Assembly (NCBI GenBank): GCA_903825615.1
Contig: CAIKBK010000015.1
Location: forward strand, 1 to 10,894
From: Candidatus Vogelbacteria bacterium
GTDB taxonomy: Bacteria > Patescibacteriota > Minisyncoccia > Phycocordibacterales > XYD1-FULL-46-19
DNA length: 10,894 bases
Direction of reading: 5' to 3'
The position numbers and the translations under genes were made by a program. Of the stretch, positions 861-3,007 are shown piece after piece (positions within the stretch are counted from its first letter, which is position 1; each line of letters begins with the position of its first letter). The notes under the pieces are model-generated. The model did no database searches. It saw only the letters and a list, made by a program, of their open reading frames with translations, and had not been told where the DNA came from.

Positions 861-1007
861 TCCACAAATCGAAACCTCCCCGAAAAATTGCTCCGCGCGC
901 TCACGCGCGATGGTGATGAGTGGGTGGTGGAACGGCTCGCCCGTGCGACGGGCGCTCGCGAATTCGGTGGGTGGGCAGAGAGCAAGAAATGAGATCTTAA
1001 CGGACTT
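861..1007 (+). repeat. Left inverted-repeat arm, remnant of a recombinase 3' end
   Basis: Bases 861-976 match the reverse complement of 2450-2565 with six differences in 116 positions. Past that, similarity continues to 1007 with a 9-bp in-frame insertion relative to the right arm. Read on the minus strand, the arm encodes CPPTEFASARRTGEPFHHP and onward, nearly the same as the C-terminus of the resident recombinase and preceded by a matching KSV..SF. I therefore read it as the leftover 3' end of a second, oppositely oriented recombinase copy. The arm also has two internal perfect palindromes, 894-899/904-909 and 938-944/948-954. Confidence 0.8.
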
Positions 1008-1035: not shown

Positions 1036-2628
1036 ATGATCAAACCAAAATATTTTCTTTACGCCCGCAAATCAACCGAAGATGACGACCATCAGATTAT
1101 GTCGATTGAAGCGCAATTGTTTGAGTTGCGAGAATTTGCGCGCAAAGAAAATCTGGAAATTCTTGAGGAATTTACCGAATCAAAAAGCGCTAAGAAACCC
1201 GGTCGTGAGAAATTCGGCGAGATGATGGGAAAAATTGAGAATATGGATGGTATGGGTATTCTCGCGTGGCACCCTGACCGTTTGGCTCGTAATAGTATTG
1301 ATGGTGGACGCATCATCTACGCCGTGGACACGACCAAGATCGTTTCTTTACGCTTCCCGACTTTTTGGTTTGAACCGACCCCGCAAGGCCTCTTTATGTT
1401 ACAAGTGGCGTTCGGCCAGTCCAAATATTATTCTGACAACTTAGTCGAGAATATCAATCGCGGTATCCGCCAAAAATTGCGCCGTGGCGAGTGGCTAACC
1501 AAAGCGCCGTTTGGTTATGTGAATAATCCGCGAACGAGAAATATTGAACCTGATGTGGTGAAGTCGAAAATTATTGTTCGCGCTTTTGAAGAATACGCCA
1601 CCGGTCGCCACGGCTTAGAATCGTTGGCTCAGTTTTTGGCTCTGTATGGTGTGACCACTAAAGCCGGAACGCCACTGGCCAAAGCTTCCGTTTCTTGTTT
1701 GTTGTCCAACAAAGCCTATCTCGGTTTAACCAAACATCATCGCGAGTATTTTGCCGGAAGCTTTGCGCCAATTCTTTCTCATGATTTATTCGAAGCCGTG
1801 CAAAAAAGATTGAGAGAGCGAGCTCATCCTCGCCGAACCAAAATCGGCCACAATTTTCCTTTCACCGGTTTATTCCATTGTGGCGAGTGCGACAGTATGA
1901 TTACCGCTCAATGGTGCACGGGAAAATCCGGTGGTCGTTATCGTTATTATCGTTGCACTAAGAAGAAAGGAAAATGTGGTCAAAAATATCTGCGCGAGGA
2001 CTTGCTCGTCTCGCAATTAAGAGCACGGCTTGAAAAAATCGCTCTGCCCGACGACTGGACCGACTACATGTTGCGCCAAACGGATATTTGGGACAAAGAA
2101 GACAAGGTGTCGTCGAGCAGTCGGCTCGAGCAAGTCAAAAATGAGGAGCGAGAGACCGAACAAAAGCTCGATGAGTTGGTTAATTTATATTTGGATGGTG
2201 ACATCCCAAAAGAAAATTATCTTATTAAGAAAAACGAGCTTTTGAAGCAAAAAATGTCTCTCGCGCAAAAAATTGACTCTGCTCGAGCCGAGAGAAAGAA
2301 TTGGGTCGAACCCTTGCGGTTATGGATTTTAGATATGAAAAAAGCCACGCAATTGCGTACCAGTGAAGATTTTTTTGAAATTCGTGATTATTTCAAAAAA
2401 ATCGGAACGAACCCGCAATTGAGGGACAAGTCCGTCTCGGTCTCATTTTGCCCACCCACTGAATTCGCGAGCGCTCGTCACGCGGGCGAGCCGTTCACCC
2501 ACCCACTCATCACCATCGCGCGTGAGCGCGCGGAGCAATTTTTCGGGGAGGTTTCGATTTGTGGACCTACGGGGAGTCGGACCCCGACCTGTTCCATGCC
2601 ATGGAACCGTTCTACCGCTATACTATAG
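1036..2628 (+). CDS. Serine recombinase, zinc-ribbon type
   Basis: This is a site-specific serine recombinase (resolvase/invertase superfamily), which cuts and rejoins DNA at att sites through a phosphoserine link. Visible parts are: an N-terminal resolvase domain with the ARKST motif and catalytic Ser13, and the HPDRLARNS segment (79-87) with conserved arginines; a Recombinase domain at about 155-265; a zinc ribbon with C282, C285, C307 and C314; and a charged helical, probably coiled-coil segment at about 360-420. The final ~65 residues are unusual. Residues about 465-509 are encoded by the inverted repeat, and 510-530 (PTGSRTPTCSMPWNRSTAIL) are the antisense translation of the tRNA-Ala gene, which supplies the TAG stop. 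The normal family end is therefore probably near residue 465-470. The ATG at 1036 has no Shine-Dalgarno, but residues 6-14 match the family N-terminus. The family call is secure; whether it transposes, integrates or inverts DNA is unknown. Confidence 0.93.
   Translation: MIKPKYFLYARKSTEDDDHQIMSIEAQLFELREFARKENLEILEEFTESKSAKKPGREKFGEMMGKIENMDGMGILAWHPDRLARNSIDGGRIIYAVDTTKIVSLRFPTFWFEPTPQGLFMLQVAFGQSKYYSDNLVENINRGIRQKLRRGEWLTKAPFGYVNNPRTRNIEPDVVKSKIIVRAFEEYATGRHGLESLAQFLALYGVTTKAGTPLAKASVSCLLSNKAYLGLTKHHREYFAGSFAPILSHDLFEAVQKRLRERAHPRRTKIGHNFPFTGLFHCGECDSMITAQWCTGKSGGRYRYYRCTKKKGKCGQKYLREDLLVSQLRARLEKIALPDDWTDYMLRQTDIWDKEDKVSSSSRLEQVKNEERETEQKLDELVNLYLDGDIPKENYLIKKNELLKQKMSLAQKIDSARAERKNWVEPLRLWILDMKKATQLRTSEDFFEIRDYFKKIGTNPQLRDKSVSVSFCPPTEFASARHAGEPFTHPLITIARERAEQFFGEVSICGPTGSRTPTCSMPWNRSTAIL
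2428..2565 (-). repeat. Right inverted-repeat arm, inside the recombinase CDS
   Basis: This arm is the inverted counterpart of 861-1007. Unlike the left arm it lies wholly inside the resident recombinase frame, where it encodes the tail from KSVSVSF to VSICG. Its last four bases are the 3' end of the tRNA-Ala gene. One internal palindrome that is perfect in the left arm (938-954) is broken here by substitutions. Confidence 0.8.
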
Positions 2629-2632
2629 GCCC
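2562..2632 (-). tRNA. tRNA-Ala (anticodon GGC)
   Basis: A full cloverleaf of 71 nt can be drawn on the minus strand. The acceptor is GGGCCTA/TAGGTCC with discriminator A, the D-arm is GTAT-AGCGGTA-GAAC, the anticodon stem is GTTCC/GGAAC with loop ATGGCAT, the variable loop has four bases, and the T-arm is CGGGG-TCCGACT-CCCCG. The anticodon is GGC. The alanine identity pair G3-U70 is present, and the loop has the A32/U38 combination known from tRNA-Ala(GGC). CCA is not encoded. Two oddities are C instead of U at position 55 and an A12/A23 mismatch in the D-stem. The recombinase ORF runs antisense across the gene, and the GIY-YIG ORF ends inside its first 15 bases. With a nuclease gene directly upstream and no clear promoter of its own, the tRNA may be processed from a longer transcript. 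Confidence 0.9.
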
Positions 2633-2881
2633 TTGTATTATCTTATTTTTTAAAAATCTTCGACCAGCTGCACTTTTAAAATACAATTCTCTTTTTCTTG
2701 CTGTTGAGAAATCATTATATTCTTCAGTATAAACCAGGGATAAACCACCCATCTTTCTGGTAGTAATTGTTCTACCTGTTTCATGCTCCCGGATCCTCCT
2801 CTTGAGATTATTCGTCAAACCCTTATAAAGTTTACCATAAGAATCCCTAAGAACGTATACTGTGTAATTTTCAATTTTCAT
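2618..2881 (-). CDS. Small GIY-YIG nuclease family protein
   Basis: This 87-residue stand-alone GIY-YIG domain protein has the same length as the small UvrC-like nucleases that are frequent in CPR genomes. Visible motifs are the degenerate GIY (YTVYVL, residues 6-11), the YIG equivalent LYKG (18-21), the helix NLKRRIREH (25-33) with the conserved arginine, and the ARKREL segment with the likely metal-binding Glu65, then the family's GRRFLK end (73-78). The last codons (QGPIV and the stop) come from the 5' end of the tRNA-Ala gene, so the target DNA provides the stop codon. The ATG at 2881 follows directly on a partial tRNA-Ala copy and has no Shine-Dalgarno. The position between a tRNA half and an intact tRNA suggests a homing-type cassette that cuts tRNA-Ala. 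This is inference; the general family has other members with unknown roles. Confidence 0.85.
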   Translation of the reverse strand: MKIENYTVYVLRDSYGKLYKGLTNNLKRRIREHETGRTITTRKMGGLSLVYTEEYNDFSTARKRELYFKSAAGRRFLKNKIIQGPIV

Positions 2882-2882
2882 A

Positions 2883-2955
2883 CCATGCCATGGAACCGTT
2901 CCCCGCCCGTACCGAATGGCACGTTCGGGCGGGTACCGCTATACTATAGGCCCTT
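2883..2955 (-). pseudogene. 5'-half copy of tRNA-Ala, interrupted in the D-loop
   Basis: On the minus strand this repeats 41 bp of the intact tRNA-Ala (2594-2634), from two bases before the acceptor to just past the anticodon (ending GGCATGG). The repeat is identical except for a 32-nt insertion after the D-loop sequence GCGGTA. The 3' half of the tRNA is absent, so it cannot give a tRNA. It is a direct repeat flanking the GIY-YIG gene, as expected if a cassette inserted in the anticodon region and carried or duplicated the 5' half. Confidence 0.88.
2902..2933. repeat. 32-nt hairpin inserted in the tRNA D-loop
   Basis: The inserted sequence folds back on itself. An outer 7-8 bp stem CCCGCCC/GGGCGGG surrounds an inner stem GTGCC/GGTAC (minus-strand reading) with loop ATTC and a GAAC bulge. 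Its plus-strand core CCGCCCGTACCGAA resembles CCGCCCATACCGAA at 706-719, and CCGCCCGAA recurs at 690-698. It may therefore belong to a family of small palindromic repeats in this genome. Confidence 0.7.
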
Positions 2956-2969
2956 ATCGGACACTTGAT

Positions 2970-2994
2970 AATATAGCAAATTTCTTGAAATTTG
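2970..2994 (-). promoter_or_regulatory. Possible promoter of the original tRNA-Ala locus
   Basis: Upstream of the tRNA half-copy on the minus strand, TATATT/TATTAT (around 2970-2975) could serve as a -10 box 15 bases before the tRNA sequence. The -35 region is poorly matched. Next to it, CAAATTT/AAATTTG (2977-2983/2988-2994) forms an AT-rich hairpin that could instead belong to the 3' end of the preceding gene. Confidence 0.3.
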
Positions 2995-3007
2995 GGAAGT
3001 TAAAATT

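What the first reader, a model, noticed from the sequence alone, without database searches (positions are those of the whole stretch)
2594..2955. GIY-YIG cassette splits and rebuilds a tRNA-Ala gene
A 41-bp direct repeat, the 5' half of tRNA-Ala through the anticodon, flanks a small GIY-YIG gene. The downstream copy is a complete tRNA; the upstream one is a stranded half. The nuclease ORF starts two bases after the half-copy and takes its stop codon from the intact tRNA. This is what a homing-type element would leave if it broke the anticodon region and restored the tRNA with its own 5' half. It also makes the tRNA depend on transcription through the nuclease gene. I know of no described family with this layout, but I cannot search.
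Basis: partly seen in the sequence, partly recalled or inferred. Interest (0 to 1): 0.85.

Follow-up and report, generated by a model that had tools for sequence, protein, structure and literature searches.

The report
Tiny nuclease element inside tRNA genes
A very small DNA-cutting enzyme gene sits at the start of a tRNA gene together with a broken, hairpin-carrying copy of that tRNA's first half, and the same arrangement recurs in front of many different tRNA genes in distant bacteria, which points to a mobile element that settles in essential genes without destroying them.

Summary
It is not a one-off. The one other GIY-YIG gene found in this genome sits the same way on tRNA-Asn. Of the best 80 relatives from a scan of 84,980 species, 64 lie within 150 nt upstream of a same-strand tRNA; none has one on the opposite strand. 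Of 97 non-redundant tRNA-adjacent loci, 79 carry a stranded 5' tRNA copy; in 66 of the 71 with a plausible insertion point the interrupting sequence folds strongly. ORF-less copies exist, two with empty sites in a sister genome. Hairpin type follows nuclease clade (6 changes; minimum 27 in 300 shuffles). Stranded copies match the local tRNA although related nucleases sit at other isotypes (22 of 23), against a rescue half carried from a donor. Best reading: a tRNA-targeting mobile element, hairpin plus minimal GIY-YIG nuclease, that duplicates its target's 5' part and leaves a working tRNA. Mobility and chemistry are unshown. Nine PMC searches found no description.

The parts
2970..2998 (-). 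promoter-like site (TTCCCA-17-TATATT, TG before second hexamer) upstream of the stranded half
   Evidence: pattern scan; resembles the region before the paralogous tRNA-Ala on C97 (TTATATTATCAA against CTATATTATCAA). Consensus match only
2934..2955 (-). stranded tRNA-Ala copy, first block: 2 leader bases plus tRNA positions 1-20
   Evidence: 22/22 identical to 2613-2634
2902..2933 (-). GC-rich hairpin (type CCCGCCCG...CGGGCGGG) interrupting the stranded copy in the D-loop
   Evidence: -20.3 kcal/mol, z -3.4
2883..2901 (-). stranded tRNA-Ala copy, second block: tRNA positions 21-39 (through the anticodon)
   Evidence: 19/19 identical to 2594-2612
2618..2881 (-). GIY-YIG nuclease ORF, 87 aa, single recognised domain; last 15 bases lie inside the tRNA
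   Evidence: Y19, R29, E65, K69 invariant in 97 of 97 aligned relatives
2561..2632 (-). intact tRNA-Ala (anticodon GGC)
   Evidence: ARAGORN; Rfam RF00005

Best explanation
It is one copy of a family of minimal mobile elements that live in tRNA genes. Each copy is: tRNA 5' part interrupted by a GC-rich hairpin, then (in autonomous copies) a one-domain GIY-YIG nuclease gene, then the complete tRNA. SHOWN: layout; recurrence in several phyla; presence and absence within one genus (for ORF-less copies); strong purifying selection on the nuclease; agreement of hairpin type with nuclease clade. INFERRED: insertion happens in the 5' part of a tRNA gene, most often marked by the hairpin in the D-arm; the target's own 5' part is duplicated, so the broken copy stays upstream behind the native promoter and a full copy remains downstream; the nuclease drives this, probably by nicking or cutting tRNA-gene DNA and acting with its cognate hairpin; the tRNA is transcribed through the element and freed by RNase P. 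UNKNOWN: how the second copy of the 5' part is made, and what spares the intact copy from the nuclease.
For: Position: 40 of 91 order-level relatives (tRNA 37, tmRNA 3) and 64 of 80 database-wide relatives (tRNA in all 64) have one within 150 nt downstream on the same strand. All neighbours within 150 nt: 41 downstream same strand, 6 upstream same strand, 0 opposite strand in the first sample; 65, 7 and 0 in the second. ORF ends inside the tRNA in 48 of 97. Left copy: 79 of 97. Hairpin: 66 of 71 inserts fold at -8 kcal/mol or better against 10 of 69 neighbouring segments. Duplication starts within -5..+2 of the tRNA 5' end in 59 of 71. Hairpin type against nuclease tree: 6 changes, shuffles at least 27 (65 of 97 rows typed). 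Local origin: 22 of 23 (exception L139). Empty sites: tRNA-Ile(gat) occupied in G001, empty in G000; tRNA-Arg(gcg) the reverse. ORF-less copies: L096, L097, L102, L107, L109. dN/dS 0.08-0.17 in the 6 of 12 pairs not saturated; active-site-like residues invariant. G000 and G001 share the flank upstream of the stranded tRNA-Asn copy (85% over 103 bases) but carry nucleases from different branches.
Against: No movement was observed, and I read of no biochemistry on this sub-family. The rebuilt copy has the same sequence as the stranded one here (41 of 41), and 13 of 25 ARAGORN calls in G000 share the D-arm TAGARC, so a nuclease cutting by tRNA sequence alone should attack its own and other tRNAs. 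18 of 97 tRNA-adjacent loci show no significant left copy. Two of four empty-site pairs had no shared flanks, and both good ones concern ORF-less copies. The window's own locus has no orthologous empty site: the neighbour gene in G001 has no tRNA beside it. Hairpin types were defined by me on the same data, and the tree has many unresolved forks. CCCGCCCG hairpins also occur away from tRNAs (by eye, 7 of 20 sampled loci lie in tRNA sequence), and G001 has such hairpins although the three of its four matched nucleases that I placed are not window-like.
Confidence: 0.6

Rival explanations
1. Classical homing with a carried rescue half: the nuclease cuts the tRNA gene, the donor allele is copied in, and the donor's 5' half completes the recipient's 3' half.
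For: Layout resembles fungal mitochondrial mobile ORFs that split a gene and supply a replacement end (PMC3630166). Outside the window-like group, isotype follows the nuclease tree (24 changes, shuffles at least 41), as allelic homing predicts.
Against: Inside the window-like group isotype does not follow the tree (16 changes; shuffles from 15, mean 17.8), yet left copies match the local tRNA (22 of 23). The supplied copy is not divergent here (41 of 41). The D-arm TAGARC is in 13 of 25 ARAGORN calls of the host.
Confidence: 0.2
2. RNA-level role: the half tRNA with hairpin is a leader that controls nuclease expression or tRNA processing, and the nuclease is a host RNA or DNA enzyme fixed beside tRNAs, not mobile.
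For: No neighbouring tRNA on the opposite strand in either sample, and 48 of 97 ORFs end inside the tRNA. A GIY-YIG domain fused to a TrmH-type tRNA methyltransferase domain led earlier authors to suggest a role in RNA metabolism for prokaryotic Slx1 relatives (PMC1564403, passages).
Against: Presence and absence between sister genomes, ORF-less copies, many isotypes, and hairpins also outside tRNAs.
Confidence: 0.1
3. Two unrelated things: dispersed palindromes (like Rickettsia palindromic elements) collect in dead tRNA copies, and nuclease genes merely survive beside tRNAs.
For: CCCGCCCG palindromes occur outside tRNAs, one apparently inside a lysine-rich reading frame (L101). L100 and L111 are hairpin-bearing tRNA-like copies without a nuclease.
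Against: 66 of 71 inserts fold strongly against 10 of 69 controls; hairpin type tracks the nuclease tree.
Confidence: 0.08
4. Assembly artefact or chance repeat.
For: The window is from a fragmented genome (117 contigs).
Against: Same layout with different sequences in many assemblies, including isolates.
Confidence: 0.01

Closest known systems
Fungal mitochondrial mobile ORFs making gene hybrids (Allomyces atp6; Glomus atp6, atp9, cox2, nad3; PMC3630166, abstract and section 18 part 1 read)
   Same: An endonuclease ORF splits a gene, one copy of the split part is stranded, a full-length gene remains; the Glomus atp9 case is GIY-YIG
   Different: There the supplied end is divergent, taken as foreign, and is the 3' end of a protein gene; here the copy is local, is the 5' part of a tRNA, and carries a hairpin
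Free-standing phage homing endonucleases such as T4 SegB, GIY-YIG between tRNA genes (PMC2988022, passages read)
   Same: GIY-YIG gene beside tRNA genes, same orientation
   Different: Intergenic rather than in a split gene; the intron-encoded enzymes of that review join the catalytic domain to DNA-binding domains, while the ORF here is 87 aa with only PF01541 found
REP/RAYT and Rickettsia palindromic elements (PMC3733652, passages read)
   Same: Short palindromes associated with a mobilising enzyme; palindromes inside genes; copies without the enzyme
   Different: RAYTs are IS200/IS605-family tyrosine transposases; here the recognised enzyme is GIY-YIG and the palindrome sits inside a tRNA copy; copy numbers are low (0-10 exact copies of CCTGCCTGCCGGCAGGCAGG per genome, 21 of 99 genomes)
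Integrative elements that rebuild tRNA genes (tyrosine integrases; recalled, no call)
   Same: Insertion into a tRNA gene with the gene restored
   Different: Integrase-driven, usually restore the 3' part; no integrase gene was found in this 300-bp element
Group I introns in rRNA and tRNA genes (CPR rRNA insertions with LAGLIDADG enzymes, PMC11270868, abstract and section list read; tRNA-Asn introns in G009 and G010)
   Same: Inserts in RNA genes of the same kinds of bacteria, often with a nuclease
   Different: Self-splicing; here a complete tRNA copy follows and no intron family matches in the window

Membership tests
GIY-YIG nuclease superfamily | Pfam PF01541 match above cut-off | tested here: met
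   46.2 bits against 22.6
GIY-YIG nuclease superfamily | conserved Tyr, Arg, Glu active-site positions | tested here: met
   Y19, R29, E65 in 97 of 97; their catalytic role is recalled
Small single-domain UPF0213 proteins | sequence similarity to solved members | tested here: met
   1ywl E 7e-4, 1zg2 E 9e-4
Group I intron with homing endonuclease | intron structure at the site | tested here: not met
   no intron match at the gathering score in the window, (introns were found in L209, L210, L220)
Fungal-type mobile ORF with carried rescue end | supplied copy divergent from the native one, taken as foreign | tested here: not met
   41 of 41 identical here; left copy local in 22 of 23
Free-standing homing endonuclease | gene lies between genes without splitting or duplicating them | tested here: not met
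   stranded tRNA copy here and in 79 of 97 relatives
Homing endonuclease (activity) | cuts the empty allele, spares the occupied one | not testable with these tools
   needs biochemistry
REP/RAYT system | IS200/IS605-type transposase gene | tested here: not met
   the only ORF of the element with a recognised domain is PF01541; two overlapping frames of 57 and 61 aa on the other strand were not scanned
tRNA-integrating element | integrase gene within the element | tested here: not met
   none recognised between the copies; the serine recombinase lies on the other side of the tRNA

The most novel reading that the evidence does not exclude
A new class of minimal bacterial transposable element: a GC hairpin plus an 80-90 residue GIY-YIG nuclease matched to its own hairpin type, which inserts by DNA structure (tRNA arms, loops of RNase P RNA, palindromes at gene starts), duplicates the local target so that essential genes survive, and has hairpin-only copies: a low-copy GIY-YIG counterpart of the RAYT/REP system, present in several bacterial phyla.
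Probability: 0.35. Interest if true: 0.93.

Novelty: new variant of a known kind. Interest (0 to 1): 0.82.

Why it matters
tRNA genes are among the most conserved and essential genes, and a parasite that inserts into them must avoid killing its host. This family appears to solve that with about 300 bp, one protein of some 87 residues and a hairpin, in several bacterial phyla. If confirmed it adds an enzyme type to those that mobilise palindromes, gives a natural case of insertion into an essential gene that leaves it working, and would explain many small GIY-YIG genes of Patescibacteria and Bacteroidota. It also warns annotators that stranded, hairpin-bearing tRNA halves are remnants, not tRNAs.

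Tried and rejected
Rejected: chance or misassembly (recurrence). Rejected: self-splicing intron in the window. Set aside on thin evidence: phage-borne spread (one confirmed relative among 16 pattern matches in viral contigs). Weakened: rescue half carried by the donor. Weakened: cleavage by tRNA sequence alone.

Led nowhere: an orthologous empty site for the window's own tRNA-Ala (neighbour gene 40% identical in G001, no tRNA beside it). Empty-site pairs for tRNA-Arg(cct) and tRNA-Tyr had no shared flanks (2 of 4 pairs). A first hairpin score (median 5.3 in 97 tRNA-adjacent loci against 2.0 in 59 without a neighbouring tRNA) handled bulges badly and was replaced by folding the inserts.

Limits of the counts: loci are the best-scoring matches plus the own tRNA-Asn locus, not all matches; one search kept 80 of 368 confirmed. 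From 101 tRNA-adjacent loci four repeats of earlier loci were dropped, giving 97. The chaining favours two-block solutions; it mis-split the hairpin of L004, and 8 of the 79 had insertion points outside tRNA positions 5-40 and were left out of the fold count. 32 of 97 loci got no hairpin type from my patterns and were left out of the tree test. The 'window-like' group is the 28 rows left after cutting off a branch of 64 rows (SH-aLRT 99) and one of 5 (100) on the unrooted tree; it is not shown to be a clade. In one search, 23 of these 28 were used (L008, L009, L118, L119, L128 dropped; none has a significant left copy). In one search the tRNA-Pro(cgg) and tRNA-Thr(cgt) hits of G001 look like other things (no hairpin; a stretch that reads as coding). 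dN/dS pairs share some members (L161 and L127 occur in more than one). Hairpin sampling took 22 of the 32 sites, in 20 stretches. No structure prediction was run.

Searches behind 'no description found': (PMC open-licence papers only, no preprints; listings read, five papers opened in part: PMC11270868, PMC3630166, PMC2988022, PMC1564403, PMC3733652).
Full report
WHAT IS THERE. On the minus strand, 5' to 3': a promoter-like site (2998-2970); a stranded tRNA-Ala 5' part in two blocks, 2955-2934 and 2901-2883, with a 32-nt GC hairpin between them at 2933-2902; a GIY-YIG ORF 2881-2618; and an intact tRNA-Ala(GGC) 2632-2561. The two blocks equal leader bases -2 and -1 plus tRNA positions 1-20 and 21-39. 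The ORF ends on a TAG at tRNA positions 13-15.

SURROUNDINGS. The genome (578 kb, 117 contigs, 93.3% complete) has a second tRNA-Ala(GGC) on C97, preceded by a similar promoter-like stretch, which in the window lies before the stranded half. A simple pattern scan found no promoter-like site on that strand between the ORF start and the intact tRNA. Beyond the tRNA 3' end lies a serine recombinase gene with 117-bp inverted repeats on either side of its larger part.

NOT A ONE-OFF. The PF01541 search found one other GIY-YIG gene in this genome. It sits directly upstream of tRNA-Asn and has a stranded tRNA-Asn half with a GC-rich insert in the D-loop. A search with the window protein hit 77 of 99 genomes, own included. 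Of 91 loci examined (the best-scoring ones plus the own tRNA-Asn locus), 40 have a tRNA (37) or tmRNA (3) within 150 nt downstream on the same strand; for 4 the nearest lies upstream on the same strand; 47 have none. A scan of 84,980 species kept 80 of 368 confirmed relatives: 64 have a tRNA downstream on the same strand, 3 only upstream, 13 none. Counting every neighbour within 150 nt, none in either sample is on the opposite strand. By record title the tRNA-adjacent loci come from Patescibacteria, several Bacteroidota groups, Chlorobiota, Nitrospirae and Elusimicrobia.

THE STRANDED COPY AND HAIRPIN. After removing repeats and tmRNA, 97 tRNA-adjacent loci remain; 79 have a stranded 5' copy that at most 1 of 100 shuffles equals, 18 do not. 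In 71 of the 79 the interruption falls at tRNA positions 5-40; 66 of these 71 inserts fold at -8 kcal/mol or better, against 10 of 69 neighbouring segments of the same length. The interruption lies at positions 11-25 in 57 of 71, at 5-10 in 9, at 26-40 in 5; some tRNA-Asn copies are broken near 7-9 and some tRNA-Ser copies after the anticodon. In 59 of 71 the duplication starts within -5..+2 of the tRNA 5' end. The ORF ends inside the tRNA in 48 of 97; in 26 of 97 its stop is a TAG at tRNA positions 8-10.

NUCLEASE AND HAIRPIN BELONG TOGETHER. On a tree of 97 nucleases (78 columns; 50 of 94 inner branches unresolved), hairpin type needs 6 changes over 65 typed rows and 6 states; 300 shuffles gave at least 27. 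tRNA isotype follows the tree outside the window-like group (24 changes, shuffles at least 41) but not inside it (16, shuffles from 15, mean 17.8). In that group the stranded copy still matches the local tRNA better than any other isotype in 22 of 23 loci; L139 is the exception. So these nucleases have changed tRNA targets, and the duplicated part comes from the target. Types were drawn up by me on the same sequences, which is a weakness.

EMPTY SITES AND ORF-LESS COPIES. Sampling by hairpin instead of protein (22 of the 32 sites, in 20 stretches) gave five ORF-less copies, stranded half plus hairpin shortly before the intact tRNA: L096, L097, L102, L107, L109; two tRNA-like copies with a hairpin (L100, L111); and 13 loci where I recognised no tRNA sequence by eye. 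For tRNA-Ile(gat), G001 is occupied and sister genome G000 empty, with the upstream flank conserved to the tRNA start; for tRNA-Arg(gcg), G000 is occupied and G001 empty, with both flanks conserved. Two other pairs had no shared flanks. For ORF-bearing tRNA-Asn, G000 and G001 share the flank upstream of the stranded copy (85% over 103 bases) but carry nucleases from different branches, and seven other genomes of the family show, by eye, no stranded copy in the 120 nt before tRNA-Asn.

THE PROTEIN IS UNDER SELECTION. dN/dS is 0.08-0.17 in six pairs; six further pairs were saturated at synonymous sites. Y19, R29, E65 and K69 are invariant in 97 of 97, H33 in 96, Y9 in 95. The nearest solved relatives are UPF0213 proteins 1ywl and 1zg2. 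At 87 residues, with no further Pfam domain found, it has little room for a separate DNA-binding domain, which is why I lean towards structure or hairpin recognition; this is inference.

OTHER SUB-FAMILIES. Of 51 order-level relatives without a downstream tRNA or tmRNA, 26 have inverted flanking matches of 10 nt or more (shuffles 0.8%). Several lie at the start codon of a protein gene, with ATGA(A/G) on both sides. L049 lies inside an RNase P RNA gene, in the loop of a helix near model position 255, and L038 apparently in another RNase P RNA loop. Sparing the host gene may therefore be a habit of the wider group.

MECHANISM. Shown: layout, recurrence, presence and absence, selection, hairpin-nuclease agreement. 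Inferred: nuclease-driven insertion with local duplication, read-through transcription, release of the tRNA by RNase P. Open: what spares the intact copy. 13 of 25 ARAGORN calls in G000 and 21 of 47 in G001 carry the same D-arm TAGARC, so sequence-only cleavage is hard to accept. A hairpin-recognising, RAYT-like role meets its own difficulty: the palindromes are few per genome (0-5 CCCGCCCG sites in 41 genomes; 0-10 copies of CCTGCCTGCCGGCAGGCAGG in 99 genomes), and G001 has CCCGCCCG sites without a window-like nuclease among the three of its four matches that I placed.

AGAINST KNOWN SYSTEMS. Fungal mobile ORFs supply a divergent gene end taken as foreign (PMC3630166); here the copy is local. 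T4 SegB sits between tRNA genes and is reviewed as a free-standing, intergenic enzyme (PMC2988022, passages). RAYT/REP pairs use a tyrosine transposase (PMC3733652, passages). More than half of CPR rRNA insertions are group-I-intron-like, with enzymes centred on LAGLIDADG (PMC11270868, abstract). Nine literature searches listed no paper that I recognised as describing this layout.

VERDICT. A real and widespread element family; I class it as a new variant of endonuclease-driven, host-gene-sparing mobile DNA. A distinct class of hairpin-plus-GIY-YIG transposable element is the bolder reading, at 0.35.

Noticed in passing
window 861-977 and 2449-2565: 117-bp inverted repeats, 95% complementary, lie around the larger part of the serine recombinase gene (1036-2628 +); the right arm lies inside that gene and ends in the 3' end of the tRNA-Ala, and the recombinase frame reads antisense through most of the tRNA.
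   Followed up: partly
L049 (minus strand 535-1120) and L038: GIY-YIG genes in loops of RNase P RNA genes; the flanking inverted repeats there look like native RNA stems.
   Followed up: partly
L017, L019, L020, L022, L029, L035, L045: GIY-YIG elements at start codons of protein genes with end repeats of the type CCCGTTAGAGAT / ATCTCTAACGGG and ATGA(A/G) on both sides.
   Followed up: partly
L042, L044, L069: Relatives 65-84 nt upstream of tmRNA genes, without a detectable stranded copy.
   Followed up: no
L101 809-838: A CCCGCCCG hairpin of 30 nt inside what looks like a lysine/alanine-rich reading frame, apparently in frame, as described for Rickettsia palindromic elements.
   Followed up: no
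L209, L210: tRNA-Asn genes of two genomes of the same family (G009, G010) carry group I introns.
   Followed up: no
L013 and L229: Another small ORF with an HNH-like stretch (motif recalled) beside tRNA-Thr genes.
   Followed up: no
L032 and L033: Sister genomes keep the same stranded tRNA-Ser half while the intact tRNA of L032 differs on both sides of its anticodon stem, as if the stranded half were a fossil of the older tRNA.
   Followed up: no
L182, L009: Second hairpin-bearing tRNA copies in tandem or downstream, suggesting repeated insertion at one tRNA.
   Followed up: no
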